DNA of 64,000 nt from Endozoicomonas sp. 4G (GTDB taxonomy: Bacteria; Pseudomonadota; Gammaproteobacteria; Pseudomonadales; Endozoicomonadaceae). Positions 4,957 through 62,065 of the stretch are shown here, piece after piece. A program made the position numbers and the translations under genes. How positions within the stretch are numbered: position 1 is the stretch's first letter; the number at the start of each line of letters is the position of its first letter. The notes under the pieces are model-generated. The model was not told the DNA's origin and did not search any database. It was given only the letters and a program-made list of their open reading frames with translations. The stretch is taken from NCBI RefSeq assembly GCF_023822025.1, contig NZ_CP082909.1:4942001-5006000 (forward strand), given 5' to 3'.

Positions 4957-5101
4957 ATTTGATTTATTTCTTCAGAACAGTCCGTTTCTGTGCTTTATTT
5001 AGGGGGCGTCGGCAGCTTGACCAAGCCATTGCTGATACCTCCACAAGAGTAAGTCCCTTACCCGGACTCTGCTCACAATCATTAAAACAAGCGGAGAGAC
5101 G

Positions 5102-15841: not shown

Positions 15842-16010
15842 ACCTAAACCTCTTGAATCATTGCGTATCTGTTATTTACGCCGCTCACCAGCTGTGGGGC
15901 GTAGTACTGGTTCGTGCTGCCGATATAGAGACAAGGCAATCAGAGCAGCTAAAATTCACTGGCGGATTATATGGCAGAATTTGTTCAGTTTCTTCCCCAG
16001 ATATACCTAT

Positions 16011-16649
16011 ATGGTTAAAAAAGAAACGAGTTTTGACTCAGGAATCAGGCTCTGTCCTGACTGTGACCTGATGATAAAGACCCCGACCTTTGCTCATGAC
16101 CCGGCCTATCGGCAGCAGGCTTCATGCCCCCGATGCGGCTGTGTGCTGGAGTCTCACCGACCTGCGGGCATCCAGCGCTGCCTGGCTCTGGTTGTGACCG
16201 GCTTAATCCTGTTTATACCCGCCAATTATTACCCCGTTCTCTCCATGGATATTCTGGGGAATGTGCAGCAAAGCACGATTTCTGAAGGGGTAATCGCTCT
16301 TTACCAGGGAGGTTATGGTGCCGTCGCTCTGCTGGTTCTGTTGTCTGCCATCCTGATCCCTTTTCTGCGTCTTGTGATTTTGTTTCAGGTTCTTGTTTCT
16401 GTCGGCAACGGTTGGGGACGCAGAAGATCCAGAACCTTGTTGAGAATTTATACGCTCTTGCAAGAGTGGGGTATGACAGAAATCTATTTCCTGGGCGCCC
16501 TGGTAGCGGTTATCAAGCTGGCAGATATGGCCAGTGTGCAGACCGGTGCAGGCTTATATTGCTTTGCCGGGCTGATGCTCTGTGAACTGATGATCACCCT
16601 GAACCTGAATGAGCATGAGCTGTGGAAAATGTTGGGAGAGGATCCATGA
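16011..16649 (+). CDS. PqiA/LetA-family membrane protein, first half (split LetA)
   Basis: A 212-residue inner-membrane protein with one PqiA domain. ATG 16011 is preferred because the family N-terminus (VKKETSFDSGIRLCPDCDL) begins there; the longer frame upstream runs into the deoR-type promoter region. A zinc-ribbon pattern CPDC...CPRCGC precedes four hydrophobic segments, including GLILFIPANYYPVLSMDILG, the PqiA hallmark. E. coli LetA (YebS) and PqiA carry two such domains in one chain; here the second is a separate gene that overlaps by 4 bases (ATGA). Its partner is the MCE protein downstream, for lipid movement across the envelope. Confidence 0.85.
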   Translation: MVKKETSFDSGIRLCPDCDLMIKTPTFAHDPAYRQQASCPRCGCVLESHRPAGIQRCLALVVTGLILFIPANYYPVLSMDILGNVQQSTISEGVIALYQGGYGAVALLVLLSAILIPFLRLVILFQVLVSVGNGWGRRRSRTLLRIYTLLQEWGMTEIYFLGALVAVIKLADMASVQTGAGLYCFAGLMLCELMITLNLNEHELWKMLGEDP

Positions 16650-17293
16650 CCGTAACAGATCCATCCAGCCAGATGTCCAGCGGTGCTGAGCGCAGGATAA
16701 AACTTTGCCTGAACTGCCACAGGGTGTGTCGGGCAGGTGAGATCCGATGTCCCCGATGTGGCAGCAAAGTACGTCTAAGAAAAAAGGACAGCCTTTCTCG
16801 TTGCTGGGCTCTGACCCTGAGCGCCGCGCTGCTCTACATACCTGCAAACCTGCTGCCGATAATGACGGTAAGCCGGTTTGGGCGAGGCAGGCCAGATACC
16901 ATTATGTCGGGCGTCATAGAGCTGATGCACCATGGTATGGCACCCATTGCCCTGCTGGTTTTTACCGCCAGTATTCTGGTGCCCCTGATGAAACTTCTGG
17001 GCATGGCATGGCTGCTGGTTTGTGTGCAAACAGGGGCAATGAACCCGGATCGTCAGACCCGTCTGTATCGACTGATTGTCTGGATTGGCCGCTGGTCCAT
17101 GCTGGATATTTTTATTATTTCCCTTCTTGTCGCACTGGTGCAGTTCGGTCATCTGGGTACTGTGACGGCCGGTCCTGCTGCTTTTGCGTTTGCTGCGGTG
17201 GTGGTGCTAACCATGTCGGCAGCCATGAGTTTTGATCCCAGACTACTTTGGGATCGGTCCAGTCAGTTGAGCTTAAAAGGAGATCAACAGTGA
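16646..17293 (+). CDS. PqiA/LetA-family membrane protein, second half (split LetA)
   Basis: A 215-residue inner-membrane protein with a second PqiA domain. ATG 16646 overlaps the previous stop (ATGA) and follows GGGAGAGG. The N-terminal zinc ribbon is CLNCHRVC...CPRCGSKV, then ALLYIPANLLPIMTV and three more membrane segments. With the preceding gene it reconstitutes the two-domain LetA/PqiA arrangement. The GTG start of the MCE gene overlaps its stop. Confidence 0.85.
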   Translation: MTVTDPSSQMSSGAERRIKLCLNCHRVCRAGEIRCPRCGSKVRLRKKDSLSRCWALTLSAALLYIPANLLPIMTVSRFGRGRPDTIMSGVIELMHHGMAPIALLVFTASILVPLMKLLGMAWLLVCVQTGAMNPDRQTRLYRLIVWIGRWSMLDIFIISLLVALVQFGHLGTVTAGPAAFAFAAVVVLTMSAAMSFDPRLLWDRSSQLSLKGDQQ

Positions 17294-49016: not shown

Positions 49017-49042
49017 CGGCTTTTGCCAATGGGTAAAAGCCG
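49017..49042. terminator. Hairpin shared by the E2 gene and array copy 1
   Basis: Stem CGGCTTTT...AAAAGCCG with the inner bases GCC/GGT. On the + strand it is followed by ATCATTTTTG, so it should end the dehydrogenase operon. On the minus strand it lies just past the stop of copy 1. The same hairpin recurs in the array spacers. Confidence 0.7.
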
Positions 49043-49074
49043 ATCATTTTTGAGCAAGATGAAAGTTGAATCTG

Positions 49075-50508
49075 TCAGTTAAACAGAGTCGAGAGATAAT
49101 CCAGTGGCGCGTAGAACTTTTTCCACTGAGTCCAGGCGGTCTCTGAAAGGCTTTGTTCCAGTGGATAGCCATAAACAGCGTAGTTTGAAAGACTATTGAT
49201 AACAGCGAAAGTCAACGCAGGTGCCAAAGTGACACCGGCTTTGATACACAGGTTGTCTGAGGTTGCCTTCGAACTGGCCAACATAAGCAAGTTTCCTACT
49301 CCGATCAGGGCTACGGCTATGAATCCGACTCCCAGTGTGACTCCGAGTCCGTCTTCGATTCCGTTTCCGAGTCCGGATCCAGCTCCGGCCAGGGCTCCGG
49401 ATAGGGTTCCGATCAAAGATCCTAATCCTGCTCCGTATCCTGCTCCTGCTCCCGCTCCTGCTCCTGCTCCTGATCCGACTCTTGATCCGATTTCTGCTCC
49501 GACTACGCCTCCGGTTACACCTCCAAGTCCAACTCCGACTGCGGCTACGACTCCAGCGCCAACTACGGGTCCGGATACAGCTCCGGATAAGACTCCAGCC
49601 AGAGCTCCGACTACGGTTCCGGCTCCTGCTCCGATTCCGGCTCCGGCTGCCGCTCCAGATACAGATCCAGTTATGGCTCCAGCCAGGGCTCCAGCCAAGG
49701 CTCCGAATCCGGCTCCGATTCCAGCTCCGACTCCGGCTCCGACTCCGGCCTTTGTCTGTTCGTCCACATCCATTATTAACCCTGAACTAATTCCCGAGAG
49801 GACTCCCACCATCGCTGCGCTGACAACAGCAGCAAGACTCGCTCTTGCTGGCCTGAAGCCTTTATGGATCAAGGCTTCATAAGTGACAGCACCAACTATA
49901 ACCCCATTAATCGCAGACAATATTGCGTATTCCGCAGTCACATACCGTTTAGTTGTAATATCTCTGACGAACCTCATGTTTCTTAGCATTGACACCGAAA
50001 TAGCACTGGCTCCGGTTCTTAATAGCGCTTCTGAAGCAAGGTAAGTCAAGAGTTCGACAGGTATGCGCTTCCTCGTTTCCGTCGCATAAATGTCCATTCC
50101 TGCACCAGCAAAAAAAAGGAGTTTCCACCAGTGCTGTTCCAGGGGCCAGGAAGACACATGCCCGGCCAGCGCCACTTCGGCGGTGGTTATCACGGGAGCC
50201 AGTTGCAAACAGAAATCCGTTTTCAACTCTTCCAGCTCCTTTGTATCCGATGCAGCCAGATCATAGGTGCCTGAAAGCCCGGTGACTATTCCCGTTGTTT
50301 TACAGACAGCCCACCATACACCCAGGTTGAGCAGGGTAGACACAGAGACTCCGGCAACGCTTCCCGCTAACTCAAGCCCGTTTGCCACCAGTGCGCTGTC
50401 ATTAAAAGGCTTAATAAAATCAAAATCATTTTGTGAAGGAGGGCTGGCCTTTGCCGTCGAATAAAACAAACACAAAAGTAACGGAAACAGGTTGAATAAC
50501 TTTTTCAT
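49075..50508 (-). CDS. Array copy 1: secreted glycine-zipper protein, long centre
   Basis: A 477-residue protein of no family I know. Signal peptide MKKLFNLFPLLLCLFYSTAKA (cleavage about 21). Mature N-terminal part: NDFDFIKPFNDSALVANG, then WWAVCKT (Cys69), ELKTDFCLQLAPVITTAEVA (Cys100), GHVSSWPLEQHWW. Several hydrophobic stretches lie between 100 and 245. From about 253 to 395 the chain is almost only Gly, Ala, Val, Ser and Leu in GxxxG steps (AGVGAGVGAGIGAGFGALAG). The C-terminal part is VTLAPALTFAVINSLSNYAV, then YPLEQSLSE and WKKFYAPLDYLSTLFN. It could form a pore, a membrane-packed helical bundle or a fibrous surface layer; these are guesses. Confidence 0.85.
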   Translation of the reverse strand: MKKLFNLFPLLLCLFYSTAKASPPSQNDFDFIKPFNDSALVANGLELAGSVAGVSVSTLLNLGVWWAVCKTTGIVTGLSGTYDLAASDTKELEELKTDFCLQLAPVITTAEVALAGHVSSWPLEQHWWKLLFFAGAGMDIYATETRKRIPVELLTYLASEALLRTGASAISVSMLRNMRFVRDITTKRYVTAEYAILSAINGVIVGAVTYEALIHKGFRPARASLAAVVSAAMVGVLSGISSGLIMDVDEQTKAGVGAGVGAGIGAGFGALAGALAGAITGSVSGAAAGAGIGAGAGTVVGALAGVLSGAVSGPVVGAGVVAAVGVGLGGVTGGVVGAEIGSRVGSGAGAGAGAGAGYGAGLGSLIGTLSGALAGAGSGLGNGIEDGLGVTLGVGFIAVALIGVGNLLMLASSKATSDNLCIKAGVTLAPALTFAVINSLSNYAVYGYPLEQSLSETAWTQWKKFYAPLDYLSTLFN

Positions 50509-50638
50509 GGTGATTTCCCGAATACAGCGAATGAACAGGAAATATAGATCCTAAATAGAGCTATGAATGAAAATATCCTTAACTACCAAGTGCGGAAATA
50601 AGTCAGCCCCTGAGTCAGCAGTTTTTGGCTGCCAAACT

Positions 50639-50667
50639 TTTACATTAACTTAGTCGTATAATTTCAA
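50639..50667 (-). promoter_or_regulatory. Promoter candidate of array copy 1
   Basis: On the minus strand TTGAAA, 17 bases, TGTAAA. The block is kept in six spacers at the same distance (about 130 bases) from the start codon. Confidence 0.5.
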
Positions 50668-50680
50668 CCTATAAGTAGTA

Positions 50681-50708
50681 CCGGCTTTTGCCAATGGGTA
50701 AAAGCCGG
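50681..50708 (-). terminator. Hairpin after array copy 2
   Basis: CCGGCTTTT/AAAAGCCGG stem in the spacer past the copy 2 stop. There is no T tract in gene direction (a T-rich stretch lies on the other side), so terminator function is likely but unproven. Confidence 0.5.
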
Positions 50709-50739
50709 TCCTTTATTTGAAAAATAAAAATTGAATCTG

Positions 50740-52212
50740 TCAGTTAAACAAAGTCGAGAGGTAATCCTGGAGCGCATAGAACTTTTTCCACTGAGTCCAG
50801 GCGGTCTCTGAAAGGCTTTGTTCCAGTGGATAGCCATAAACAGCGTAGTTTGAAAGACTATTGATAACAGCGAAAATCAACGCTGGTGCCAAAGTGACAC
50901 CGGCTTTGATGCACACGTTGTCTGAGGTTGTCTTCGAACTGGTCAAAATAAGCAAGTTTCCGGCTGCGTACAGGACTACGGTTGTGAATCCGACTCCCAG
51001 TGTGATTTTGACTCCGTCTTCGATTCCGTCTCCGGCTCCGACTCCGAGTCCGGATGAAGCTCCGGCTAAGGCTCCGGACAGGGTTCCGATAAAAGCTCCC
51101 AATGCTGCTCCTGACCCGACTCCTGACCCGACTCCTGACCCGACTCCTGACCCGACTCCTGATAAGACTCTTGATCCGACTCTTGATCCGATTTCTGCTC
51201 CGACTACACCTCCGGTTACACCTCCAAGCCCAACTCCGACTGCGGCTACGACTCCAGCGCCAACTACGGGTCCGGATACAGCTCCGGCTAAAACTCCAGC
51301 CAGAGCTCCGGCTCCGGTTCCGGCTCCGGCTCCGATTACGGCTCCAGCTCCGGCTCCAGATACAAATCCAGCTATGGCTCCAGCCAGGTCCCCAGCCAGG
51401 GCTCCGGCTCCGGCTCCGGCTCCGATTCCGACTCCGACTCCGGCCTTTGTCTGTTCGTCCACATCCATTATTAACCCTGAACCAATTCCCGAGAGGACTC
51501 CCACAATCGCTGCATTGACAACAGCAGCAAGACTCGCTTTTGCTGGCCTGATGCCTTTATGGATCAAGGCTTCATAAGTGACAGCACCGGCCATAACCCC
51601 ATTAATCGAAGACAATATCGCGTATTCCCCAGCCACATACCGTTTAGTTGTAATATCTCTTACGAACCTCGTTTTTCTTAGAATTGACACCGAAATAGCG
51701 CTGGCTCCGGTTCTTATTAGCGCTTCCGTAGCAAGGTAAGCTAAAACTTCGACAGGCATGGCGTGCTCGATCGTTCCCCTCATAGAGGCATAAGTGACCA
51801 TTCCGGCACCGGCAAAATAAAGGAGTTTCCACCAATGCTGTTCCAGGGGCCAAGAAGACACATGCCCGGCCAGCGCCACTTCGGCGGTGGTTATCACGGG
51901 AGCCAGTTGCAAACAGAAATCCGTTTTCAACTCTTCCAGCTCCTTTGTATCCGATGCAGCCAGATCATAGGTGCCTGAAAGACCGGTAACTATTCCCGCT
52001 GTTTTACAGACAGCCCACCATACACCCAGGTTGAGCAGGGTAGACACAGAGACTCCGGCAATGCTCCCCGCTAACTCAGGCCCATTTGCCACCAGTGCGC
52101 TGTCATTAAAAGGCTTAATAAAATCAAAATCATTTTGTGAAGGGGGGCTGGCCTCTGTCGTCGAATAAAACAAACACAAAAGTAACGGAAACAGGTTGAA
52201 TAACTTTTTCAT
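50740..52212 (-). CDS. Array copy 2: secreted glycine-zipper protein, longest copy
   Basis: A 490-residue paralogue. Residues 1-130 are nearly identical to copy 1, as is the upstream spacer, so 1 and 2 are the youngest pair. Signal peptide MKKLFNLFPLLLCLFYSTTEA. The centre (about 255-420) contains a stretch absent from copy 1, four tandem Val-Gly-Ser-Gly units coded by a perfect 12-bp repeat (51111-51158). The middle part (residues 140-190) has more substitutions than the ends (EHAMPVEVLAYLATEAL, SILRKTRFVRDITTK). Ends in YALQDYLSTLFN. Confidence 0.85.
   Translation of the reverse strand: MKKLFNLFPLLLCLFYSTTEASPPSQNDFDFIKPFNDSALVANGPELAGSIAGVSVSTLLNLGVWWAVCKTAGIVTGLSGTYDLAASDTKELEELKTDFCLQLAPVITTAEVALAGHVSSWPLEQHWWKLLYFAGAGMVTYASMRGTIEHAMPVEVLAYLATEALIRTGASAISVSILRKTRFVRDITTKRYVAGEYAILSSINGVMAGAVTYEALIHKGIRPAKASLAAVVNAAIVGVLSGIGSGLIMDVDEQTKAGVGVGIGAGAGAGALAGDLAGAIAGFVSGAGAGAVIGAGAGTGAGALAGVLAGAVSGPVVGAGVVAAVGVGLGGVTGGVVGAEIGSRVGSRVLSGVGSGVGSGVGSGVGSGAALGAFIGTLSGALAGASSGLGVGAGDGIEDGVKITLGVGFTTVVLYAAGNLLILTSSKTTSDNVCIKAGVTLAPALIFAVINSLSNYAVYGYPLEQSLSETAWTQWKKFYALQDYLSTLFN
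51111..51158. repeat. 12-bp tandem repeat in the centre of copy 2
   Basis: CTGACCCGACTC occurs four times in a row on the + strand, with diverged units on both sides. It codes for Val-Gly-Ser-Gly units on the minus strand and is missing from copy 1. Confidence 0.9.
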
Positions 52213-52342
52213 GGTGATTTCCCGAATACAGCGAATGAACAGGAAATATAGATCCTAAATAGAGCTATGAATGAAAATATCCTTAACTACCAAGTGCGGA
52301 AATAAGTCAGCCCCTGAGTCAGCAGTTTTTGGCTGCCAAACT

Positions 52343-52371
52343 TTTACATTAACTTAGTCGTATAATTTTAA
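52343..52371 (-). promoter_or_regulatory. Promoter candidate of array copy 2
   Basis: On the minus strand TTAAAA, 17 bases, TGTAAA, at the same distance from the start as in the other copies. Confidence 0.45.
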
Positions 52372-52384
52372 TCTGGAAGCAGTA

Positions 52385-52412
52385 CCAGCTTTTACCAATG
52401 GGTAAAAGCCGG
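52385..52412 (-). terminator. Hairpin after array copy 3
   Basis: CCAGCTTTT/AAAAGCCGG. The one change relative to the other copies gives a G-U pair in the minus-strand RNA, so the stem is kept. Confidence 0.45.
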
Positions 52413-52444
52413 TCCTTTATTTGAAAAAATAAACATTGAATCTG

Positions 52445-53662
52445 TCAGTTAAACAAAGTCGAGAGATAATCCAGGGGCACATAGAACTTTTTCCACTGAG
52501 CCCAGCCGATCTCTGAAAAGCCTTCTTCCAGCGGATGGCCATAAACAGCGTAGTTTGAAAGACTATTGATAACAGCGAAAACCAGCGCAGGCGCCCAAGT
52601 GACACCGGCTTGGATATACCGGTTGTCTGAGACTTTCTTCGAACTGACCAACATAAGTGAGCCTCCGAATAAACCCAGCATTGCGGCTGAGCATCCGCTG
52701 AAGGTTCCGACTACAAACTCAGCTCCTGCTGCTGCTCCAGCAACGGCTCCGGCTCCGGCTCCGACTATGGCAGTGACTATGGCTCCAGCTTTGGTTACAG
52801 CTCCTGCTGTGGTTCCGGTTCCGCCTTTGGTTACGTATATGGGTACAAGTGCAGCCACGCCTCCGGAACAGACTACGGCTACGACCCAGACTCCGGCCTC
52901 TGTCTGTCCTCCGCCCAAATCAACTGTTAACAGTGAAAAAATGTCTGAGAGGGTACCCACAATAAGTGCGCTGAACACGGAAGCAAGCGTCGCTCCTACT
53001 GGACGATAGCCTTTATAGATCATGGCCTCATAACCGACAGTCCCCGCGATAACCCCATTAATTACCGACAACATTGAGTATTGCCAAACCGCATACGATT
53101 CAGTTGAAATATCCCTTACGTCCATTTTTCTTAGAAGTAGCGCCGAAATAGCACCCGTTCCAGTTCTTGATATCGCTTCTGACGCAAGGTAGGTCAAAAC
53201 TGCGACAGGTACGCGCTCCCTCTTTTTCGCAGCAACGGCATGAGCTGCCATTCCGGCACCGACAAAATACTGGGGCTTCCACCACCACTGCTTCAGGGGC
53301 CAGGGAGACACATGCCCGGCCAGCGCCACTTCGGCAGTGGTTATCACGGGAGCGAGTTGCAAACAGAAATCCGTTTTCAACGCCTCCAACTCCTGTGTAT
53401 CCGATTCAGCCAGATCGTATGTTCTTGAAAGCCCGGAGACTATTCCCGCTGTTTTACAGACCCCCCACCACATACCGAAGCTGAGCAGGGTAGACAAAGA
53501 AACTCCAGCAATGCTTCCCGTCAACTTAAGCCCATTCGCCACCAGTGCAGTGTCATTAAGAGGCTCAAGAAAATCAAAATCATTTTGTGGGGTGGGACTG
53601 GCCTGTGCCGTCGAATAAAGCAACCACAAAAGTAACGGAAGCAGGTTGAATGACTTTTTCAT
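52445..53662 (-). CDS. Array copy 3: shortest copy, reduced zipper
   Basis: A 405-residue paralogue. Signal peptide MKKSFNLLPLLLWLLYSTAQA; Cys69 and Cys100 are kept (WWGVCKT, TDFCLQLAP), as is GHVSPWPLKQWWW. The Gly/Ala region is cut to about residues 280-335 (AGAVTKAGAIVTAIVGAGAG), the remainder being ordinary hydrophobic sequence, with two extra Cys (VVCSGG, SGCSAA). The C-terminal part is diverged (YGHPLEEGFSEIGWAQW) but ends DYLSTLFN. It has its own promoter block upstream. Confidence 0.85.
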   Translation of the reverse strand: MKKSFNLLPLLLWLLYSTAQASPTPQNDFDFLEPLNDTALVANGLKLTGSIAGVSLSTLLSFGMWWGVCKTAGIVSGLSRTYDLAESDTQELEALKTDFCLQLAPVITTAEVALAGHVSPWPLKQWWWKPQYFVGAGMAAHAVAAKKRERVPVAVLTYLASEAISRTGTGAISALLLRKMDVRDISTESYAVWQYSMLSVINGVIAGTVGYEAMIYKGYRPVGATLASVFSALIVGTLSDIFSLLTVDLGGGQTEAGVWVVAVVCSGGVAALVPIYVTKGGTGTTAGAVTKAGAIVTAIVGAGAGAVAGAAAGAEFVVGTFSGCSAAMLGLFGGSLMLVSSKKVSDNRYIQAGVTWAPALVFAVINSLSNYAVYGHPLEEGFSEIGWAQWKKFYVPLDYLSTLFN

Positions 53663-53779
53663 GGTGATTTTCCAGATACAGCGACTGAACAGGAAATATA
53701 GATCCTAAACGGAGCTATGAATGAAAATATTCTTAACTACGAGTGCGGAAATAAGTCAGCAGTATTTGGCTACCAATCT

Positions 53780-53808
53780 TTTACATTAACTTAGTCGTAT
53801 AATTTTAG
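53780..53808 (-). promoter_or_regulatory. Promoter candidate of array copy 3
   Basis: On the minus strand CTAAAA, 17 bases, TGTAAA. The -35 element is weaker than in the other copies. Confidence 0.4.
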
Positions 53809-53824
53809 TTTGTAAGTAGTCGTA

Positions 53825-53852
53825 CCGACTTTTGCCAATAGGTAAAAGTCGG
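53825..53852 (-). terminator. Hairpin after array copy 4, with a compensatory change
   Basis: CCGACTTTT/AAAAGTCGG. Both arms differ from the common CCGGC/GCCGG stem at the paired position, so pairing is restored. This covariation supports a real RNA or DNA structure. Confidence 0.55.
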
Positions 53853-53885
53853 CCCTTTATTTGAAGAATGTAAAAGTTGAATCTG

Positions 53886-55271
53886 TCAGTTAAACAAAGT
53901 CGAGAGATAATCCAGGGGTGCATAGAACTTTTTCCACTGAGTCCAGCCGGTCTCTGAGAGGCTTTGTTCCAGTGGATAGCCATAAACAGCGTAGTTTGAA
54001 AGACTATTGATAACGGCGAAAGCCAACGCAGGTACCAAAGCGACACCGGCCTGGATATACCGGTTGTCTGAGGTTTTCTCCGAACTGACCAACATAATAA
54101 AGGCTCCAACTCCACCCATGGCTGCGACTGTGGCCCCAACTCCGATTCCAACTGCGGCTCCGGCCACATCTCCGGCTGCGTCTACGGCTCCAAGTGCGGC
54201 TCCGGATACAGATCCGGATAAGGCTCCGGATACAGCTCCGATTACAACTCCAGGTACTGCTCCGAGTCCGGTTACGGCTCCGGCGGCAGCTGCGGCTGCG
54301 GCTCCAGCTCCAGCTCCGGCTCCAACTCCGGCTACGGCTACGGTTCCAACTAAGGATCCGACTAAGAATCCGGCTACGGCTCCGGCTAAAGCTCCAGCTC
54401 CAGCTCCAACTCCAGCTCCAACTCCAGCTCCAACTCCAACTCCAGCTCCGACTGCGGCTCCAACTCCGAGTCCGGCTCCGGTTCCTGTTACGGCTCCGAC
54501 TCCGAATCCCACTGCGTCTCTGCCCGCATCAATGATTAACTCTGAAATAATGGTTGACAGGCCACCCACAAACCCTGTGATGAGAACAGAAGCATAAACC
54601 GCGTTTGCTGGTCTGCAGCCTTTATGGATCAAGACTTCATAAGCGACATTCCCTGCCAAAAACCCATTAATCGCGGACAATACTGCGTATTCCTCAGCCA
54701 CATACCGTTCAGTTGTCATATTCCTTACGTTCATTGCTCTTAGAGTTAACACCGAAATAGCGCTGGCCCAGGTTCTTGATACCGCTTCTGAGGCAAGATA
54801 GGTAAAGATTGCGGCAGGTACGTACTCCCTCGTTTTCGTAATAGCGCCATAAGTTGCCATTCCGGCACCGGCAAAATACAAGGGCTTCCACCAGTGCTGT
54901 TCCAGGGGCCAGGGAGACACATGCCCGGCCAGCGCCACTTCGGCGGTAGTTATCACGGGAGCCAGTTGCCAACAGAAATCCGTTTTCAACTCTTCCAGTT
55001 CCTTTGTATCCGATGTCGCCAGATCGTATTTACTTGAAAGTCCGGTAACTATTCCCGCTGTTTTACACACACCCCACCATACGCCCAGGTTGAGCAGGGT
55101 AGAGAAAGAGAGCCCAGCAATGCTTTCCGTTAACTCAAGCCCGTTTGCTACCGGCGCGCTGTCATTAAAAGGCTTAAGAAAATCAAAATCATTTTGTGAG
55201 GAGCGGCTGGCCTGTGCCGTCGAATAAAACAAACACAAAAGTAACGGAAACAGGTTAAATGTTTTTTTCAC
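53886..55271 (-). CDS. Array copy 4: glycine-zipper protein with GTG start
   Basis: A 461-residue paralogue that begins with GTG (complement at 55269-55271) where the others have ATG. Signal peptide follows the pattern KKTFNLFPLLLCLFYSTAQA. The cores WWGVCKT and TDFCWQLAP are kept. The centre (about 255-400) is a long zipper with many AGAG/VGAG steps (TGTGAGLGVGAAVGAGVGVG). The 133-base spacer to copy 5 lacks both the promoter block and the hairpin found in the other spacers, so copy 4 probably depends on transcription from copy 5. Confidence 0.85.
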   Translation of the reverse strand: MKKTFNLFPLLLCLFYSTAQASRSSQNDFDFLKPFNDSAPVANGLELTESIAGLSFSTLLNLGVWWGVCKTAGIVTGLSSKYDLATSDTKELEELKTDFCWQLAPVITTAEVALAGHVSPWPLEQHWWKPLYFAGAGMATYGAITKTREYVPAAIFTYLASEAVSRTWASAISVLTLRAMNVRNMTTERYVAEEYAVLSAINGFLAGNVAYEVLIHKGCRPANAVYASVLITGFVGGLSTIISELIIDAGRDAVGFGVGAVTGTGAGLGVGAAVGAGVGVGAGVGAGVGAGAGALAGAVAGFLVGSLVGTVAVAGVGAGAGAGAAAAAAAGAVTGLGAVPGVVIGAVSGALSGSVSGAALGAVDAAGDVAGAAVGIGVGATVAAMGGVGAFIMLVSSEKTSDNRYIQAGVALVPALAFAVINSLSNYAVYGYPLEQSLSETGWTQWKKFYAPLDYLSTLFN

Positions 55272-55404
55272 GGTGATTTCCCAGATACAGTGACTGAACG
55301 GGAAATATAGATCATGAACGGAGCTATGAATGACAATTTGGTGCGGTGCAAATAAGGCAGCTGCCAGAGTTCACCGCTGATTCAGTTGCTGACAGTTGGC
55401 TCTG

Positions 55405-56739
55405 TCATTTAAACAACGTCGAGAGATAATCCAGGGGCGCATAGAACTTTTTCCACTGAGTCCAGCCGGTCTCTGAAAGGCTTTGTTCCAGTGGATAGCC
55501 ATAAACAGCGTGGTTTGAAAGACTATTGATAACAGCGAAAGCCAACGCAGGCGTCAAAGCGACACCGGCTTGGATATACCGGTTGTCTGAGGTTTTCTTC
55601 GAACTAACCAACATAAGCAAGACTCCAACTGCACCCATGGCTCCGACTGTGGCTCCGGCTCCGATTCCAACTCCGACCACATCTCCGGCTCCAAGTGCGG
55701 CTCCGGATACAGATCCGGATAAGGCTCCGGATACAACTCCGACTACAGATCCGGATAAGGCTCCGGATACAACTCCGACTACAGCTCCGGATACAACTCC
55801 GACTATAGCTCCGGGTTCCACTCCGATTCCAGATAAGGCTTCGGCGGCAGCTCCAACTCCGGCTACGGCTTCGGTTCCAACTAAGGCTCCGGCTAACGCA
55901 CTGGCTCCGGCTAAGGCTCCGGCTAAGGCTCCGGCTCCGGCTCCAGATCCACCAGATCCGACTGCAGCTCCGAATTCTACTCCGTCTCCGTCCGCATTAA
56001 TGATTAACTTCGAAATAACGCCCGACAGGCCACCTACAATCATTGTGATGAGAGCAGAAGCAAAAGTCGCTTGTGCTGATCTGCTGCCTTTATGGATCAA
56101 GACTTCATAAGCGACATTCCCTGCCATAAACCCACTAATCGCAGACAATACTGCGTATTCCCCAGCCAAATACCATTCAGTTGTAATATTCCTTACGCTC
56201 ATTGTTCTTAGAATTAACACCGAAATAGCGCTGGCCCCGGTTCTTGATACCGCTTCTGAGGCAAGGTAGGTCAAAACTGCGGCAGGTACGTACTCCCTCT
56301 TTTTCATCGTAGCAGCATAAGCTGCCATTCCGGCACCGGCAAAATACAAGGGCTTCCACCAGTGCTGTTCCAGGGGCCAGGGAGACACATGCCCGGCCAG
56401 CGCCACTTCGGCGGTTGTCATCACGGGCACCAGCTGCAAACAGAAATCCGTTTTCAACTCCTCCAGCTCCTTTGTATCCGATGCAGCCAGATCATGTGTT
56501 CTTGAAAGCCCGGAGACCACTCCCGCTGTTTTACAGACACCCCACCATATACCTTGGTTGAGTAGGATAGATAAAGAGAGTCCAGCAATGCTTTCCGTTA
56601 ACTCAAGCCCGTTTGCCACCAGTGCGCTGTCATTAAAAGGCTTAAGAAAATCAAAATCATTTTGTGAGGGACGGCTGGCCTGTGCCATCGAATAAAACAA
56701 ACACAAAAGTAACGGAAACAGGCTGAATGACTTTTTCAT
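55405..56739 (-). CDS. Array copy 5: glycine-zipper protein
   Basis: A 444-residue paralogue. Signal peptide MKKSFSLFPLLLCLFYSMAQA; Cys69 in WWGVCKTAG and Cys100 in TDFCLQLVP. The centre contains short tandem blocks GSVVGVVSGALSGSVVGVVS made by a near-identical DNA repeat (about 55690-55800). The C-terminal part differs in one notable residue (SNHAVYG for SNYAVYG) and ends DYLSTLFK. No hairpin follows its stop before copy 4, which suggests a two-gene message 5-4. Confidence 0.85.
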   Translation of the reverse strand: MKKSFSLFPLLLCLFYSMAQASRPSQNDFDFLKPFNDSALVANGLELTESIAGLSLSILLNQGIWWGVCKTAGVVSGLSRTHDLAASDTKELEELKTDFCLQLVPVMTTAEVALAGHVSPWPLEQHWWKPLYFAGAGMAAYAATMKKREYVPAAVLTYLASEAVSRTGASAISVLILRTMSVRNITTEWYLAGEYAVLSAISGFMAGNVAYEVLIHKGSRSAQATFASALITMIVGGLSGVISKLIINADGDGVEFGAAVGSGGSGAGAGALAGALAGASALAGALVGTEAVAGVGAAAEALSGIGVEPGAIVGVVSGAVVGVVSGALSGSVVGVVSGALSGSVSGAALGAGDVVGVGIGAGATVGAMGAVGVLLMLVSSKKTSDNRYIQAGVALTPALAFAVINSLSNHAVYGYPLEQSLSETGWTQWKKFYAPLDYLSTLFK

Positions 56740-56869
56740 GGTGATTTTCCAGACACAGCGACTGAACAGGAAATATAGATCCTGAATGGAGTTATAGATG
56801 ACAATATCCTTAACTACAAAGTGCGGAAATAAGTCAGCCCCTGAGTCAGCAGTTTTTGGCTGCCAATCT

Positions 56870-56898
56870 TTTACATTAACTTAGTCGTGTAACTTTAA
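56870..56898 (-). promoter_or_regulatory. Promoter candidate of array copy 5
   Basis: On the minus strand TTAAAG, 17 bases, TGTAAA. Likely to serve copies 5 and 4. Confidence 0.45.
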
Positions 56899-56911
56899 TT
56901 TATAAGTAGTA

Positions 56912-56937
56912 CGGCTTTTGCCAATGGGCAAAAGCCG
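56912..56937 (-). terminator. Hairpin after array copy 6
   Basis: CGGCTTTTGCC/GGCAAAAGCCG, the most perfect of the spacer stems. Confidence 0.55.
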
Positions 56938-56971
56938 GTCCTTTATTTGAAAAATGTAAAAATTGAATCTG

Positions 56972-58228
56972 TCATTTAAACAAAGTCGAGAGATAATCCA
57001 GGGGCGCATAGAACTTTTTCCACTGAGTCCAGCTGGTCTCTGAAAGGCTTTGTTCCAGTGGATAGCCATAAACAATGTGGTTTGAAAGACTATTGATAAC
57101 AGCGAGTGCCAACGCAGGCGCCAAAGTGACACCGGCTTGGATAAACGGGTTGCTTGAGGTTTTCTCCGAACTGACCAGCATAAGCGACAATCCGAATCCG
57201 CCCAAGGTTATGGCCTGGACTCCGACCATCACTCCGATTTCGGGTTCGACTTTGACTTTGGTTTCAGCTAAGGCTTCAGCTGCGGCTCCGATTCCGGCTT
57301 GGTATCCGACAAAAGCCCCGGCTATAGCTACGGGTTCGAATAGAGATGGAGCTCCGGTTTCAGCTTTGATTAGATTTACGGCCAGGGCTCCGGCTATTAC
57401 CAAGACTGTGGTTGTGACTGTGTACATGGCTTCGTCGGCTCGGGCTGCGGCCCGGGCTGCGACTCCGGTCTTTGTCTGTCCGTCCACAGCAATCATTGAC
57501 TCTGGAATAATTCCCGAGAGGGTACCCACACCCGCTGCGATGACAACAGCAGCAAGAATCCCTTTTGTTAGACCGAAGCCTTCATGGGTCATAGCTGCGT
57601 AGGCGACACCGCCTGCAGTAACCATATTAAGCGCAGATAATCTTGTGTACTTCCCAGCCACATACCATTCAATTGTAATATCCCTTGCGCTCATTGTTCT
57701 TAGAATTGACACCCACGTAGTGCTGGATATAGTTCTTGTTACCGCTTCTGACACAAGGTAGTTCAAGACTACAACAGGTACGAACCCCCTTATTTGGGCA
57801 ACAGCAGCACAGGCTACCATTCCTGCACCGGCAAAATACATAGCTTTCCACCAGCGCTCCAGGGGCCAGGGAGACACATGTCCGGCCAGCGCCACTTCGG
57901 CGGTTGTCATCACGGGAGCCATTTGCAAACAGAAATCCGTTTTCAACTTCTCCAGCTCCTTTGTATCCGATGCAGCCAGATCATGTGTTCTTGAAAGCCC
58001 GGAGGCCACTCCCGCTGTTTTACAGATACCCCACCATATGCCCAGGTTGAGTAGGGTAGACACAGAGAGTCCAGCAATGCTTTCCGTTAACTCAAACTCG
58101 TTCGCCACCAGTGCAGTGTGATTAAAAGGCTTAATAAAATCAAAATCATTTTGTGAAGGGGGGCTGGCCTGTGCCGTCGAATAAAACAAACACAAAAGTA
58201 ACGGAAACAGGTTGAATGACTTTTTCAT
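56972..58228 (-). CDS. Array copy 6: paralogue with the zipper largely lost
   Basis: A 418-residue paralogue. Signal peptide MKKSFNLFPLLLCLFYSTAQA; Cys69 (WWGICKTAG) and Cys100 (TDFCLQMAP) kept. Residues about 255-350 are not a Gly/Ala repeat but ordinary sequence with charged residues (AARAADEAMYTVTTTVLVIA, AETKVKVEPEIGVMVG). The ends remain typical (NHIVYGYPLEQSLSE, DYLSTLFK). So the centre can be replaced entirely while both ends are held. The group II intron lies upstream, 8 bases beyond its -35 block. Confidence 0.85.
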   Translation of the reverse strand: MKKSFNLFPLLLCLFYSTAQASPPSQNDFDFIKPFNHTALVANEFELTESIAGLSVSTLLNLGIWWGICKTAGVASGLSRTHDLAASDTKELEKLKTDFCLQMAPVMTTAEVALAGHVSPWPLERWWKAMYFAGAGMVACAAVAQIRGFVPVVVLNYLVSEAVTRTISSTTWVSILRTMSARDITIEWYVAGKYTRLSALNMVTAGGVAYAAMTHEGFGLTKGILAAVVIAAGVGTLSGIIPESMIAVDGQTKTGVAARAAARADEAMYTVTTTVLVIAGALAVNLIKAETGAPSLFEPVAIAGAFVGYQAGIGAAAEALAETKVKVEPEIGVMVGVQAITLGGFGLSLMLVSSEKTSSNPFIQAGVTLAPALALAVINSLSNHIVYGYPLEQSLSETSWTQWKKFYAPLDYLSTLFK

Positions 58229-58358
58229 GGTGATTTTCCAGATACAGCGACTGAACAGAAAATATAGATCCTAAATGGAGTTATGGGTGACAATATCCTT
58301 AACTACGAAGTGCGGAAATAAGTCAGCCCCTGAGTCAGCAGTATTTGGCTGCCAATCT

Positions 58359-58387
58359 TTTACATTCACTTAGTCGTGTAACTTTAA
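58359..58387 (-). promoter_or_regulatory. Promoter candidate of array copy 6
   Basis: On the minus strand TTAAAG, 17 bases, TGTAAA. The intron insertion point (58394/58395) is just upstream, leaving the block whole. Confidence 0.45.
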
Positions 58388-58394
58388 TTTATAA

Positions 58395-60252
58395 ATCGGG
58401 ATAGGGCGTAGCCTCACAGCTACGCTCCTCCCACAACACCCAGCATACGGGTCCGTACTGGGCGTTTCGGTCAGTTAAGCAGCCAATAATCTAATCAAAC
58501 CTAATTCATCGAACCAACTATTCGGCAATGCTAAGTGCAGCGCAGGACTCCGGCTTATCCGCCAGTACCCTTTGCTCGATCCTACTGTCTGCCTCGTCAG
58601 CTCTTCACTGACTCCTCGCCTTCTTAGCTCCGCATATCGCTTCGGACTTTTCTTCCATTGATACCAGAGCAAACTTCTCAATCGTCGCCTGATCCAGCAG
58701 TCAAAGTTTTCAAACTCCGAACGGGTTTCAACTTCTCGAAAGTAGTTCTTCCAGCCCCGTAAATAGCGATTCAGAGACTCCAATCTCTGCTCCAGTGACC
58801 GCCCGCCTTTGCGGGTTAGTTGTTTGACCTTGTCCCTGAACCGCTTGCAGGTTTTATCTGCCAGCTTCTTCCTGCCATCTCTGGTAAAGCTGTATCCCAG
58901 GAACGCCCGCCTCCATGCCTTGTCAACTGCACTTTTCGCAACGTTGACTTTCAGCTTCAGCTTACTTTCGATGTAACGAGTCAAACTTGCCATCACTCTC
59001 TCGCCTGCTTTCTTGCTTCGCACAAACACCCGACAGTCATCAGCGTAACGTACAAATCGTAAATCACGCTTTTCTAACTCTTTATCGAGTTCATCCAGTA
59101 CGATGTTAGACAACACAGGTGAGAGCGGCCCTCCCTGAGGCACTCCTTCCGTCTGCGGTTTTACCAGCCCGTTCTCCATCACTCCGGACTGTAGGAATCG
59201 TCGAATTAAACGTAATACATCCTTGTCATCTGTGTGAACTGCCAGTTTTGCCATCAGTCGATCATGGTTAACCCGATCGAAGAATTTCGACAGGTCAATG
59301 TCCACAACCCAGTTATATCCTTCTCGGATATACGACTGAGCCTGATTAATCGCCTGATGAGCTGACCGGTTCGGCCTGAACCCGTAACTGAAAGATGAGA
59401 ACCTTAGTTCCCACTCGGCCTGCAATACTTGCTGTATCGCTTGCTGCACCATTCGGTCTAAGGCGATTGGTATACCCAACTGCCTTTCTCCTCCGTCCGG
59501 TTTGGGAATCAGTACTCGCCTTACGGGAGCAGGACGCCATTCTCCCTGCAAAAGACATTGTCGCAGTTCATGACCATGTTCTTGTAGATGGGTGTACAAC
59601 CCTTCCACTGTCATACGGTCGATCCCTGCTGCGCCTTTATTGCGTTTAACTCGCTGAAAGGCTCTTGTTAAATTATTGGGGTTGGCGATACGCTCCATCA
59701 GTCTAGTACCACCCGCCGGGCTTTCGTAATCCTGTGATACCGACACGACCTCAGCTCTCATAGCCTTGCAGCCTCCGGTTCCGCCGTGACCACTTGGCAT
59801 GAGTTCCAGTGTTTGCTGGATTTGTCTGCGTCCAGTGTATCGAATAACAGAAACTACTCACCACTCTGTACCGTTCAGGCCTTCACTGACATACGCCAGC
59901 TACTATGCCATCTGCTGACTTCTGTGTGGCGGTCAAGTCACCTTACGATGACCTCAGTCCGAAATATCAGACACCACACAGACCTCCCGAGGTAAGTCAC
60001 ACCGCCTTCGCCGCACAACCGCCAGATCTACTGCCTGAATGTCCGGATGAGTATGGACTTCGTCATCATACGCTGACTCGTCCTCACGCAAACAGCCTCA
60101 TATCTGATTTCTGTTCGTCGGCTCGCGGTTTTGCTCCACACTGCCTTCAGCCTGCATCTCACGATACAAACCTTGTGCTTCACTAGTCCTTCGCCCTCAT
60201 CTGGCTGGACAGGGGACTTTCACCCCCAAGCTGTGTGACATGCTCGGCACAC
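58395..60252 (-). mobile_element. Group II intron (probably class C) in the array spacer
   Basis: The 1858-base element is bounded on the minus strand by GTGTGCCGAGCATGTC (5' end at 60252) and ...CCCTATCCCGAT (3' end at 58395). Comparison with the uninterrupted spacers fixes both ends: TTTATAA continues as GTAGTAC without loss or duplication. The region 58400-58466 folds as domains V-VI (CGCCCAGTACGGACCCGTAT, GTGGGAGGAGCG). The 5' part (59801-60252) is the ribozyme and contains no gene. It sits 6 bases beyond the hairpin of copy 7, in the place favoured by class C introns. Confidence 0.9.
58475..59800 (-). CDS. ltrA: Group II intron reverse transcriptase/maturase
   Basis: A 441-residue intron-encoded protein. 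Reverse transcriptase blocks: RVLIPKPDGGERQLGIPIAL, FSYGFRPNRSAHQAI, VVDIDLSKFFDRVNHDRL, TEGVPQGGPLSPVLSNIVL and the catalytic FVRYADDC; then the maturase X domain (SLEQRLESLNRYLRGWKNYF). There is no HNH endonuclease domain, typical of class C. It helps the intron RNA to splice and to reinsert in DNA. All catalytic residues are intact and there is no frameshift, so the intron may still be active. Confidence 0.95.
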   Translation of the reverse strand: MPSGHGGTGGCKAMRAEVVSVSQDYESPAGGTRLMERIANPNNLTRAFQRVKRNKGAAGIDRMTVEGLYTHLQEHGHELRQCLLQGEWRPAPVRRVLIPKPDGGERQLGIPIALDRMVQQAIQQVLQAEWELRFSSFSYGFRPNRSAHQAINQAQSYIREGYNWVVDIDLSKFFDRVNHDRLMAKLAVHTDDKDVLRLIRRFLQSGVMENGLVKPQTEGVPQGGPLSPVLSNIVLDELDKELEKRDLRFVRYADDCRVFVRSKKAGERVMASLTRYIESKLKLKVNVAKSAVDKAWRRAFLGYSFTRDGRKKLADKTCKRFRDKVKQLTRKGGRSLEQRLESLNRYLRGWKNYFREVETRSEFENFDCWIRRRLRSLLWYQWKKSPKRYAELRRRGVSEELTRQTVGSSKGYWRISRSPALHLALPNSWFDELGLIRLLAA

Positions 60253-60258
60253 GTAGTA

Positions 60259-60283
60259 CAGCTTTTGCCAATGGGCAAAAGCC
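60259..60283 (-). terminator. Hairpin after array copy 7, next to the intron
   Basis: CAGCTTTTGCC/GGCAAAAGCCG. In gene direction it is followed by TACTAC and then the intron 5' end. Confidence 0.5.
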
Positions 60284-60318
60284 GGTCCTTTATTTGAAAA
60301 ATGTAAAAGTTGAATCTG

Positions 60319-61545
60319 TCAGTTAAACAGAGTCGAGAGATAATCCAGAGGCGCATAGAACTTTTTCCACTGAGTCCTGCCGGTCTCTGAAAGGCCTTGT
60401 TCCAGTGGATAGCCATAAACAGCGTAGTTTGAAAGACTATTGATAACAGCGAAGGTCAAAGCAGGCAGCAAAGTAATACCGGCTCTGATATACGGGTTGT
60501 CTGAGGCTATCCTCGAACTGCGCAACATGAGCAAGGCTCCGACTCCACCCAGAGTGGCGGCTCCGACTCCGACTCCCACTCCAACTCCGATTCCTGTCCC
60601 GACTCCGGCTGCTGCTAAGGCTCCAACGATGGTTCCGGTTACAGCCCCGGCTACGGCTCCGGATGCAGCTCCGGTTACAGTGCCGGTTACAGGCCCGGGT
60701 AAAGCTCCGGTTACCACTTCGGTTAAAGCTCCGAGTCCGTTTACTGCTGCGGCTGTAGCTCCGACTCCGGCTGCAGTTCCGGCCTTTTTCTGTCCGTCCA
60801 TATCGCTTTTGAACGCTGAAACAATTCCCGAGAGGGTACCCGCAAGCGCTGCGCTGACAACAGAAGCAAGAATCGCTTTTGCTGGACTTGAGCCTTTATA
60901 GCTCATGACTTCATAAGCGACATCCCCTGCCATAACCCCATTAACTACAGACAACACTGCGTATTCCCCAACCTCATAGCATGGAGCTATAACATCCTTT
61001 ATGTTCATTTTTCTTAGAATCAACACCGAAGTAACGCTGGCTCCAGTTCTTGATAACGCTTCTGACGCGAGGTAGGTCAAGACTGCGACAGATACCAGCC
61101 CCCTCGTATTTTTAGCAGTGACATAAGCTGCCATTCCTGCACCAGCAAAATACAGGGGTCTCCACCAGCTCTGTTTCAGGGGCCAGGGAGACACATGCCC
61201 GGCCAGCGCCACTTCGGCGGTAGTCATCACGGGCGCCAGTTGCAAACAGAAATCCGTTTTCAACTCCTCCAGCTCCTTTGTATCCGATGCAGCCAGATCA
61301 TATTTACCTGAAAGCCTGGAGACTATTCCCGCTGTTTTACAGACACCCCACCATACACCGAAGTTGAGCAGGGTAGACAAGGAGGCTCCGGCAATGCTTT
61401 CCGTTAACTCAAGCCCATTTGCCACCAGTGCGGTATCATTAAAAGGCTTCAGAAAATCAAGATCACTTTGTGAGAAGGGTTTGGCCTGTGCCATTGAATA
61501 AAGTAAACACAAAAGTAGCGGAAACAGGTTGAATAACTTTTTCAT
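60319..61545 (-). CDS. Array copy 7: first gene of the array in transcription order
   Basis: A 408-residue paralogue, the most diverged in its signal peptide region (MKKLFNLFPLLLCLLYSMAQ, then KPFSQSDLDFLKPFND). Cys69 and Cys100 kept (WWGVCKTAG, TDFCLQLAP). The centre (about 255-345) is a moderate zipper with Thr (GALPGPVTGTVTGAASGAVA; GVGTGIGVGVGVGVGA). Ends GLSETGRTQWKKF, DYLSTLFN. It has the best promoter block of the set. Confidence 0.85.
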   Translation of the reverse strand: MKKLFNLFPLLLCLLYSMAQAKPFSQSDLDFLKPFNDTALVANGLELTESIAGASLSTLLNFGVWWGVCKTAGIVSRLSGKYDLAASDTKELEELKTDFCLQLAPVMTTAEVALAGHVSPWPLKQSWWRPLYFAGAGMAAYVTAKNTRGLVSVAVLTYLASEALSRTGASVTSVLILRKMNIKDVIAPCYEVGEYAVLSVVNGVMAGDVAYEVMSYKGSSPAKAILASVVSAALAGTLSGIVSAFKSDMDGQKKAGTAAGVGATAAAVNGLGALTEVVTGALPGPVTGTVTGAASGAVAGAVTGTIVGALAAAGVGTGIGVGVGVGVGAATLGGVGALLMLRSSRIASDNPYIRAGITLLPALTFAVINSLSNYAVYGYPLEQGLSETGRTQWKKFYAPLDYLSTLFN

Positions 61546-62065
61546 GGTGATTTCCCGGATACAGTGACTGAACAGGAAATATAGATCCTAAACGGAGCGA
61601 TGGATGACAATTTCTTTAGCTACAAAGTGCAGAAATAAGTCAGCTCCAGGAGTCAGTGTATTTGGCTGCAAATCTTTTATATGACAAAAGTCGTATAATT
61701 TTAACTTATACAACAATGACAAAACCGTTACAAACCTCAATCACTCAGCACACATTTTCTGTGTGTAGAAAAAAAATCGCTATTTTCTGCCTTAAACGCA
61801 ACGACAGCTATTGCAGATTGATCAAAAACTCCACATTATAAAATCTGAGGGGTTGGAATTTTCCTGCCATTGTGTTTGGTCAACATACCGTTGAGCTTTC
61901 CATGATGTCAGCCAATGGACGGCTGCCAGCCCGGGCCACTTCCTATACTTGCTCTCTATAATTATAAGAGTGGCCAATGTACTGATCCTGCCGATAGTCG
62001 TACATAGAGGGGCCTACCCCTGGTGCGATTATCGAATCCAAACGTCAGACAGGGAAGGGCACAAT
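61546..62065. other. Intergenic region between array and prkA
   Basis: A 520-base divergent region. The left part (61546-61710) is one more copy of the array leader and promoter block. The right part is the upstream region of prkA; no gene is convincing in it. An upstream extension of the prkA frame exists but has no RBS and no family match. Confidence 0.6.
61676..61704 (-). promoter_or_regulatory. Promoter candidate of array copy 7
   Basis: On the minus strand TTAAAA, 17 bases, TATAAA, the closest of all copies to the sigma-70 consensus. It would give a leader of about 125 bases. Confidence 0.55.

What the first reader, a model, noticed from the sequence alone, without database searches (positions are those of the whole stretch)
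49017..61704. Seven-copy tandem array of signal-peptide proteins with constant ends and hypervariable glycine-zipper centres
The sequence shows seven paralogues in a row with conserved N-terminal halves (Cys69, Cys100, WPL motifs) and C-termini (DYLSTLFN/K), while the centre ranges from ~150 residues of GxxxG repeat (copies 1, 2, 4) to almost none (copy 6). I know no described family with this layout. Constant ends with exchangeable centres is what one expects of antigenic variation, of a diversified pore-forming or surface protein, or of a bacteriocin-like arsenal. Function is inference.
Basis: partly seen in the sequence, partly recalled or inferred. Interest (0 to 1): 0.9.

Follow-up and report, generated by a model that had tools for sequence, protein, structure and literature searches.

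The report
Amplified fast-evolving exported membrane-protein family
A marine symbiont genus carries up to about 27 copies per genome of an undescribed, probably exported helical protein whose ends stay constant while its middle changes fast and stretches in two-residue steps, which looks like an arms race at a membrane, but its function is untested.

Summary
Seven intact minus-strand paralogues lie at 49075-61545 with conserved N-terminal parts (C69, C100, WPL) and C-termini (DYLSTLF); centres run from about 100 to 183 residues and from 3 to 41 GxxxG motifs. This is one of several arrays: 25 copies in this genome, and 7 of 10 genomes of the genus against 0 of 27 in sister genera (E <= 0.001). 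No protein-family, PDB-sequence, phage or plasmid search gave a match.

The array is syntenic in three species, and centres of copies 1/2, 3 and 6 match their orthologues. Centre length changes in place: repeat periods are multiples of 6 bp, and 42 of 47 centre indels are even. Some gene conversion occurs (8 of 1952 tests). Residues 141-237 and the centre show dN/dS about 1.3-1.4, the constant parts 0.44-0.64, flanking genes 0.01-0.31; only the centre survives multiple-test correction.

Best reading: Sec-exported, possibly disulphide-stapled helical proteins acting at a membrane and diversifying against a host or phage. Function is inferred: both structure models failed (pLDDT 36 and 40), and no strain-level data were available.

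The parts
49075..50508 (-). copy 1, 477 aa, long glycine-zipper centre (49282-49800)
50740..52212 (-). copy 2, 490 aa, long glycine-zipper centre (50947-51495)
52445..53662 (-). copy 3, 405 aa, short centre with little zipper (52652-52951)
53886..55271 (-). copy 4, 461 aa, GTG start, zipper centre (54093-54560)
55405..56739 (-). copy 5, 444 aa, zipper centre (55612-56028)
56972..58228 (-). copy 6, 418 aa, centre present (57179-57520) but only 3 GxxxG
58475..59800 (-). group II intron reverse transcriptase/maturase (RVT_1, GIIM, TIGR04416)
59878..60168 (-). group II intron RNA matches (RF01998 59878-59956, RF02001 59997-60168); the intron's ends were not determined
60319..61545 (-). copy 7, 408 aa, centre about 60526-60834 (boundaries from the alignment)
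49020..49041 (.). hairpin after copy 1; the T-run follows on the + strand, so it may equally serve the + strand gene ending at 49009
50685..50706 (.). hairpin after copy 2 (T-run on the + strand side)
52389..52410 (.). hairpin after copy 3
53829..53850 (.). hairpin (variant) after copy 4 (T-run on the + strand side)
56915..56936 (.). hairpin after copy 6 (T-run on the + strand side)
60262..60283 (.). hairpin after copy 7, about 95 bp from the first intron RNA match
61546..61610 (-). conserved leader of copy 7 with a GATCTATATTTCC block; a similar proximal leader stands before every copy

Best explanation
The array is one locus of a multi-array family, found in one genus, of probably Sec-exported, helical proteins. 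Shown by sequence: a signal-peptide-like N-terminus; a conserved Cys pair (C69/C100); a constant first half and C-terminus; and a variable centre, in most window copies built from DNA units of 6 bp (Gly plus a small residue), whose length changes in even residue steps. The copies multiply by tandem duplication, exchange some tracts by gene conversion, and decay to fragments. Inferred: the proteins cross the inner membrane after signal cleavage and act in or on another membrane (outer surface, vesicle or host cell); the Cys pair is a disulphide staple; and the glycine-zipper centre packs or oligomerises helices there. The second half of the N part and the centre are the exposed, diversifying face, most likely in contact with the animal host, less likely with phage.
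For: Signal-peptide-like starts in 88 of 92 full-length members by a permissive motif count, and Cys at both positions in 90 of 92 (two have Cys/Tyr). TRF periods are 6, 12, 18, 24, 30, 36 and 84 bp, in copies 1, 2, 4, 5 and 7 but not 3 and 6; 42 of 47 centre indels in 17 chosen pairs are even. Gly is enriched 2.2-2.5-fold at lag 4 in copies 1, 2, 4, 5, 6 and 7 (1.3-fold in copy 3), with odd lags depleted in the zipper-rich copies. dN/dS over 13 chosen close pairs that share no member: 0.44 (residues 23-140), 1.38 (141-237, CI 1.06-1.86), 1.33 (centre, CI 1.13-1.57), 0.64 (C-terminus). Flanking genes: 0.012-0.14 in 8 comparisons and 0.05-0.31 in 9. No window copy has more than one segment with a summed Hessa value below 0, against seven in an FtsX-like permease of the window. 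Helices only in two models, both low-confidence. Distribution: 7 of 10 genomes of the genus, 0 of 27 of the rest of the family at E <= 0.001. Of 20 flanking proteins scanned in arrays and singletons, three are WD40, C2H2 zinc-finger and M60 (enhancin-like) proteins, kinds often seen in host-interaction genes (recalled).
Against: No function, location or partner was shown. Both structure models are poor (pLDDT 36.3 and 39.5), so no fold comparison was made. The proteins could be inner-membrane proteins with an uncleaved first helix: two other frames of the window that look membrane-like (15813-16646 and 16646-17290, not annotated here) have segment values in the range of the family (best four -1.7 to 4.7 and 0.3 to 4.4), so the hydrophobicity argument rests on one control. 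For this reason confidence was lowered from 0.5 to 0.45 on rechecking. The 141-237 signal has Fisher p 0.025, which does not survive correction for five regions; the centre signal (p 0.0006) rests on an alignment of repeats. N and C parts together give dN/dS 0.78. The 13 pairs were my choice of close pairs, not all pairs. N-part dS of array orthologues (0.08-0.18) is far below that of flanking genes (0.39-0.54), which I cannot explain fully. Neighbouring genes differ from array to array. A divergent tandem pair in a relative lacks the Cys pair and the zipper.
Confidence: 0.45

Rival explanations
1. Inner-membrane or envelope proteins that are phage receptors or decoys: polytopic, not secreted, diversifying to escape phage.
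For: About ten hydrophobic segments after the signal region; some segment values overlap those of membrane-like frames in the window; diversifying middle; many copies with a shared leader would allow loss of single copies.
Against: The segments are weaker than those of the one annotated inner-membrane control; 6 proteins gave no match to PADLOC at E up to 0.1 and none of note to PHROGs (best E 0.011, a tape-measure repeat); 25 or more copies per genome is unusual for a receptor (inference).
Confidence: 0.22
2. Antigenic variation by swapping of centres between copies.
For: Constant ends with variable centres; some gene conversion (7 of 976 N-part and 1 of 976 C-part pair tests significant); discordant centre in 18 of 44 members, e.g. 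G026a_7, whose N part is nearest to G026a_8 and centre nearest to G027w_6.
Against: All seven window copies are full length with start and stop, and a conserved proximal leader stands before each, so no silent cassettes and no single expression site are seen; centres of copies 1/2, 3 and 6 match their orthologues in other species. The conversion test was run on the constant parts only.
Confidence: 0.1
3. Bacteriocin or contact-toxin arsenal acting on competing bacteria by membrane insertion of the glycine-zipper centre.
For: Glycine-zipper, hydrophobic centre; many divergent copies.
Against: Five of six spacers are 133-232 bp with no frame over 28 codons, so no immunity gene stands next to the copies; the family was found in one genus only; one query found nothing on plasmids or phages.
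Confidence: 0.08
4. Relaxed constraint: a duplicate family with no strong function, whose centre drifts by slippage.
For: dN/dS close to 1 in the middle; fragments and remnants exist.
Against: All seven window copies are intact and the ends are under purifying selection (0.44 and 0.64); the Cys pair is kept in 90 of 92 members and a set of C-terminal residues in over 93% of 96; the array is kept at the same site in three species.
Confidence: 0.13

Closest known systems
Tandem paralogous surface-protein arrays of host-associated bacteria such as the Anaplasma/Ehrlichia OMP-1/MSP2/P44 families (recalled, not fetched)
   Same: Many tandem paralogues with constant ends, a variable middle, gene conversion and host association
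   Different: Those are beta-barrels (recalled); here the low-confidence models show helices only and centres are glycine zippers. No silent cassettes seen here.
Glycine-zipper membrane-depolarising toxins such as the type VIIb-secreted TspA (recalled; reviews on T7SSb and S. aureus toxins seen only as a search listing)
   Same: Glycine-zipper hydrophobic segment expected to insert in membranes
   Different: No immunity gene in the short spacers, a Sec-type signal, a conserved Cys pair, and large paralogue arrays
Chlamydial inclusion-membrane (Inc) proteins (recalled)
   Same: Lineage-specific proteins with hydrophobic helices, many paralogues with little similarity to anything else
   Different: Incs are type III secreted without a Sec signal and have a bilobed hydrophobic hairpin (recalled); these have a signal-peptide-like start and about ten segments
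Tim17/22/23 family (lead from the listing)
   Same: GxxxG-rich helices; conserved Cys (recalled)
   Different: No Tim17 match among Pfam matches at E up to 1

Membership tests
Any curated protein family | profile match at curated cut-off | tested here: not met
   Pfam: 7 of 7 copies plus 7 relatives, best sub-threshold E 0.095; NCBIfam 7 of 7 copies, best E 0.88; PHROGs 6 proteins, best E 0.011 to a tape-measure repeat; PADLOC 6 proteins, none at E up to 0.1; PDB sequences with two N-part profiles, none at E up to 10
Antigenic-variation cassette system | silent copies lacking promoter or start and one expression site | tested here: not met
   all 7 copies full length with own start and a conserved proximal leader; copy 4 lacks the distal leader block and has GTG; promoters were not mapped
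Antigenic-variation cassette system | centre exchange between copies | tested here: inconclusive
   orthologous centres conserved across species for copies 1/2, 3, 6; 26 of 44 concordant, 18 of 44 not
Antigenic-variation cassette system | variation within one strain or species over time | not testable with these tools
   one genome per species held
Bacteriocin with immunity | cognate immunity gene beside the toxin gene | tested here: not met
   five of six spacers 133-232 bp, longest frame 28 codons; the sixth holds the group II intron
Beta-barrel surface antigens (OMP-1/MSP2 type) | beta-barrel transmembrane fold with C-terminal aromatic residue | tested here: inconclusive
   low-confidence models show helices only; Phe is penultimate, followed by N or K in the window copies
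Glycine-zipper membrane-inserting protein | repeated GxxxG in hydrophobic segment | tested here: met
   14-41 GxxxG in copies 1, 2, 4, 5, 7; but only 5 and 3 in copies 3 and 6
Glycine-zipper membrane-inserting protein | membrane insertion or pore | not testable with these tools
   needs biochemistry
Sec-exported protein | N-terminal signal peptide with cleavage motif | tested here: inconclusive
   88 of 92 meet a permissive motif count; no dedicated predictor was at hand and cleavage is unknown
Tim17/22/23 | Pfam Tim17 profile match | tested here: not met
   not among matches at E up to 1
Group II intron (between copies 6 and 7) | intron RNA domains plus RT/maturase ORF | tested here: met
   RF02001 128.8 bits and RF01998 57.8 bits; TIGR04416 407.8 bits over cut-off 300

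The most novel reading that the evidence does not exclude
An undescribed exported protein family, confined to Endozoicomonas, in which the membrane-inserting glycine-zipper domain is tuned by in-frame hexanucleotide slippage between two constant, disulphide-stapled ends. Each of up to about 27 paralogues per genome would form a differently sized helical assembly in a host membrane: a repertoire diversified by slippage and positive selection rather than by cassette exchange.
Probability: 0.25. Interest if true: 0.8.

Novelty: new variant of a known kind. Interest (0 to 1): 0.6.

Why it matters
Endozoicomonas and its family are widespread symbionts of corals, sponges, molluscs and fishes (abstract of PMC13286007, listed), and many of the molecules by which they meet their host are unknown (recalled). 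A large, fast-evolving, probably exported family kept in multi-copy arrays is a strong candidate for that interface: 7 of 10 genomes of the genus carry it, six of them with tandem copies. It can be tested directly by transcriptomics, deletion of an array and localisation. The centre, whose length changes in two-residue steps, is also a clean natural system for how low-complexity membrane segments evolve.

Tried and rejected
Overlapping antisense genes: antisense open frames lie opposite the centres and dS in the array is low, so all six frames were compared. Only the sense frame is free of stops throughout. Frame -2 is free of stops in the centres of two of four pair sets, but has stops in the N and C parts; its ratios mostly follow the sense frame (0.63 against 0.68 in the w N part, 1.05 against 1.07 in the w centre), being lower in the G023 N part (1.06 against 1.54). 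Other frames with low ratios carry stops. No second constrained frame is supported; this was not a formal overlap test.

High expression with codon bias as the cause of low dS: the effective codon number of the seven copies is 51-57 against 47-52 in five flanking genes, and codon use is odd (AGA/AGG 0.82 of Arg codons against 0.36 in those genes). Rejected.

Pooled run-length test for gene conversion (42 of 512 pairs): biased, because the centre evolves faster than the ends; replaced by region-by-region tests.

Structure prediction: two jobs, both poor, so no fold search was run. Pattern scans gave hardly more sites than shuffles (promoters 13 against 11.5, terminators 13 against 12.9), and the four array hairpins that the terminator scan lists have their T-run on the + strand, against the direction of the array genes; hence I call them hairpins, not terminators.

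Weak hits outside the genus in the order-wide searches (2 of 390 genomes; 5 of 381) have one-genome E-values of 0.0009-0.01, about what that many genomes give by chance, and 5 of the 7 carry stops. These searches scored at most 7 or 15 candidates per genome. A repeated partner gene was not seen among 20 flanking proteins scanned.

Papers: term searches inside four Endozoicomonas genome papers (PMC12491435, PMC13286007, PMC6955870, PMC4671022) gave no passage on such a family. Only listings and those passages were seen, and most subscription papers are not held.
Full report
What is there. Seven minus-strand open frames at 49075-61545 encode paralogues of 405-490 aa; none has an internal stop, and copy 4 starts with GTG. 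Alignment gives 60-85% identity to copy 1, with invariant C69, C100 and WPL and the closing DYLSTLF. The centre runs from 100 to 183 residues in copies 1-6 and about 103 in copy 7. It is rich in GxxxG in copies 1, 2, 4, 5 and 7 (41, 40, 31, 22, 14), and poor in copies 3 and 6 (5 and 3). The finding is therefore confirmed, with one correction: copy 6 has a centre of ordinary length that has almost no zipper. A group II intron (ORF 58475-59800; RNA matches 59878-60168) lies between copies 6 and 7.

How widespread. A profile of the N part finds 25 places in the own genome: this array, an array near 3.19 Mb, an array near 2.79 Mb and singletons. In the family, 7 of 10 genomes of the same genus match at E <= 0.001 (25, 28, 27, 8, 6, 3 and 2 matches, fragments included; 25, 26 and 27 members in the three richest) and 0 of 27 genomes of the other genera do. 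With a broader profile of 47 N parts and one of 41 C-termini and a limit of E 10, the best match in another genus is E 0.079 and 0.27. A divergent tandem pair without the Cys pair appears in one relative. Order-wide searches (390 and 381 genomes, capped candidates) found three genomes of the genus plus weak chance-level hits, a class-wide search (369) only the own genome. Phages and plasmids (copy 7 as query) and viral contigs gave nothing. One relative is Endozoicomonas sp. ISHI1, from which the genus name is inferred. No Pfam, NCBIfam, PHROGs, PADLOC or PDB sequence match reached a cut-off.

How the array evolves. The locus lies between a branched-chain dehydrogenase E2-type gene and a PrkA-type kinase gene in three species, with 7, 4 and 9 copies (the E2 name is from reading the sequence, not from a profile). 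Copies 1 and 2 group with G026w_4 and G027w_8/9, copy 3 with G026w_3, and copy 6 with G026w_1/2 and G027s1 in the N-part tree (FastTree, 92 members; several internal branches have low support, and the C-part tree places copy 6 with copies 4 and 5). Their centres agree: 71-76% for copies 1 and 2, 71% with no gaps for copy 3, 52-58% for copy 6. Over 44 clade members the best centre match is among the three best N matches in 26 and not in 18. So the centre mostly descends with its copy. It changes length by slippage: tandem-repeat periods are 6, 12, 18, 24, 30, 36 and 84 bp, found in copies 1, 2, 4, 5 and 7, and 42 of 47 centre indels in 17 chosen pairs are even numbers of residues. Recombination is present but modest: 7 of 976 N-part and 1 of 976 C-part within-genome tests are significant after Bonferroni. 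Copies 1 and 2 have identical 150-bp upstream stretches although their genes differ. Two copies in G023 are identical. Fragments and a 42-aa remnant show birth and death.

Selection. Over 13 close pairs that I chose, sharing no member, dN/dS is 0.44 for residues 23-140, 1.38 (95% 1.06-1.86) for 141-237, 1.33 (1.13-1.57) for the centre and 0.64 for the C-terminus; N and C parts together give 0.78. Fisher p is 0.025 for 141-237, which does not survive correction for five regions, and 0.0006 for the centre, whose alignment is uncertain. Flanking genes give 0.012-0.14 (8 comparisons) and 0.05-0.31 (9 comparisons); these were compared from stop to stop, so short untranslated stretches are included. 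Two single-copy orthologue pairs give 0.54 and 1.09, so fast protein evolution is not only an effect of arrays. One thing is unexplained: array orthologues have N-part dS of 0.08-0.18, while flanking genes have 0.39-0.54. Codon bias does not explain it and antisense coding is not supported. Exchange of array DNA between species is the remaining idea; yet the upstream stretch of copy 1 and its ISHI1 counterpart differ by 21%, which speaks against a simple recent transfer of the whole block.

What it probably does. By a permissive motif count 88 of 92 members have a signal-peptide-like start, and 90 of 92 have both Cys; 44 of 92 have exactly two Cys after residue 25. About ten hydrophobic segments follow the signal region. 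They are weaker than those of the FtsX-like permease in the window, but similar to those of two other membrane-like frames there, on a position-independent scale. A proximal leader with a GATCTATATTTCC block is conserved before all copies, though copy 4 lacks the distal part. A hairpin follows six of seven copies, but its T-run lies on the other strand where the scan lists it. Copies 5 and 4 may be co-transcribed, because no hairpin and no distal leader block stand between them (inference). The best reading is a repertoire of exported, helical, membrane-active proteins that diversify against the host. Signal-like start, Cys pair, slippage pattern and elevated dN/dS are shown; export, disulphide, membrane insertion, oligomerisation and host contact are inferred. 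Two AlphaFold models failed (pLDDT 36.3 and 39.5), so there is no fold evidence.

Comparison with known systems. In layout it resembles the tandem surface-protein arrays of obligate host-associated bacteria (recalled), but its models show helices and no silent cassettes are seen. In composition it resembles glycine-zipper membrane toxins (recalled), but no immunity gene fits into the short spacers. It is filed under neither. Literature listings and term searches in four Endozoicomonas genome papers show no mention.

Noticed in passing
window 58475-60290: A group II intron lies on the array's strand a short way after the hairpin that follows copy 7, which recalls the habit of bacterial class C introns to insert beside hairpins (recalled); its ends and class were not determined.
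   Followed up: partly
L103:3079-4308 and 4682-5920: A divergent tandem pair (409 and 412 aa) in a relative shares the C-terminal layout (C-terminal profile E about 5e-4 and 7e-4) but has neither the Cys pair nor the zipper; possibly an older branch of the family.
   Followed up: partly
L105:2202-2330 and L106:2133-2525: A 42-aa frame with a signal-peptide remnant in the own genome and an internally deleted relative in another genome: traces of copy loss.
   Followed up: partly
window 49075-61545 against L046 and L058: Synonymous divergence of array orthologues is several times lower than that of the flanking genes; codon bias does not explain it and antisense coding is not supported.
   Followed up: partly
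L059:13762-16500, L049:1281-2972, L064:1028-2527: WD40, C2H2 zinc-finger and M60 (enhancin-like) genes lie beside family members, in this genome (L049) and relatives; 3 of 20 flanking proteins scanned.
   Followed up: no
window 55272-55404: The spacer between copies 5 and 4 lacks the hairpin and the distal leader block, and copy 4 starts with GTG; these two may be one transcript.
   Followed up: no
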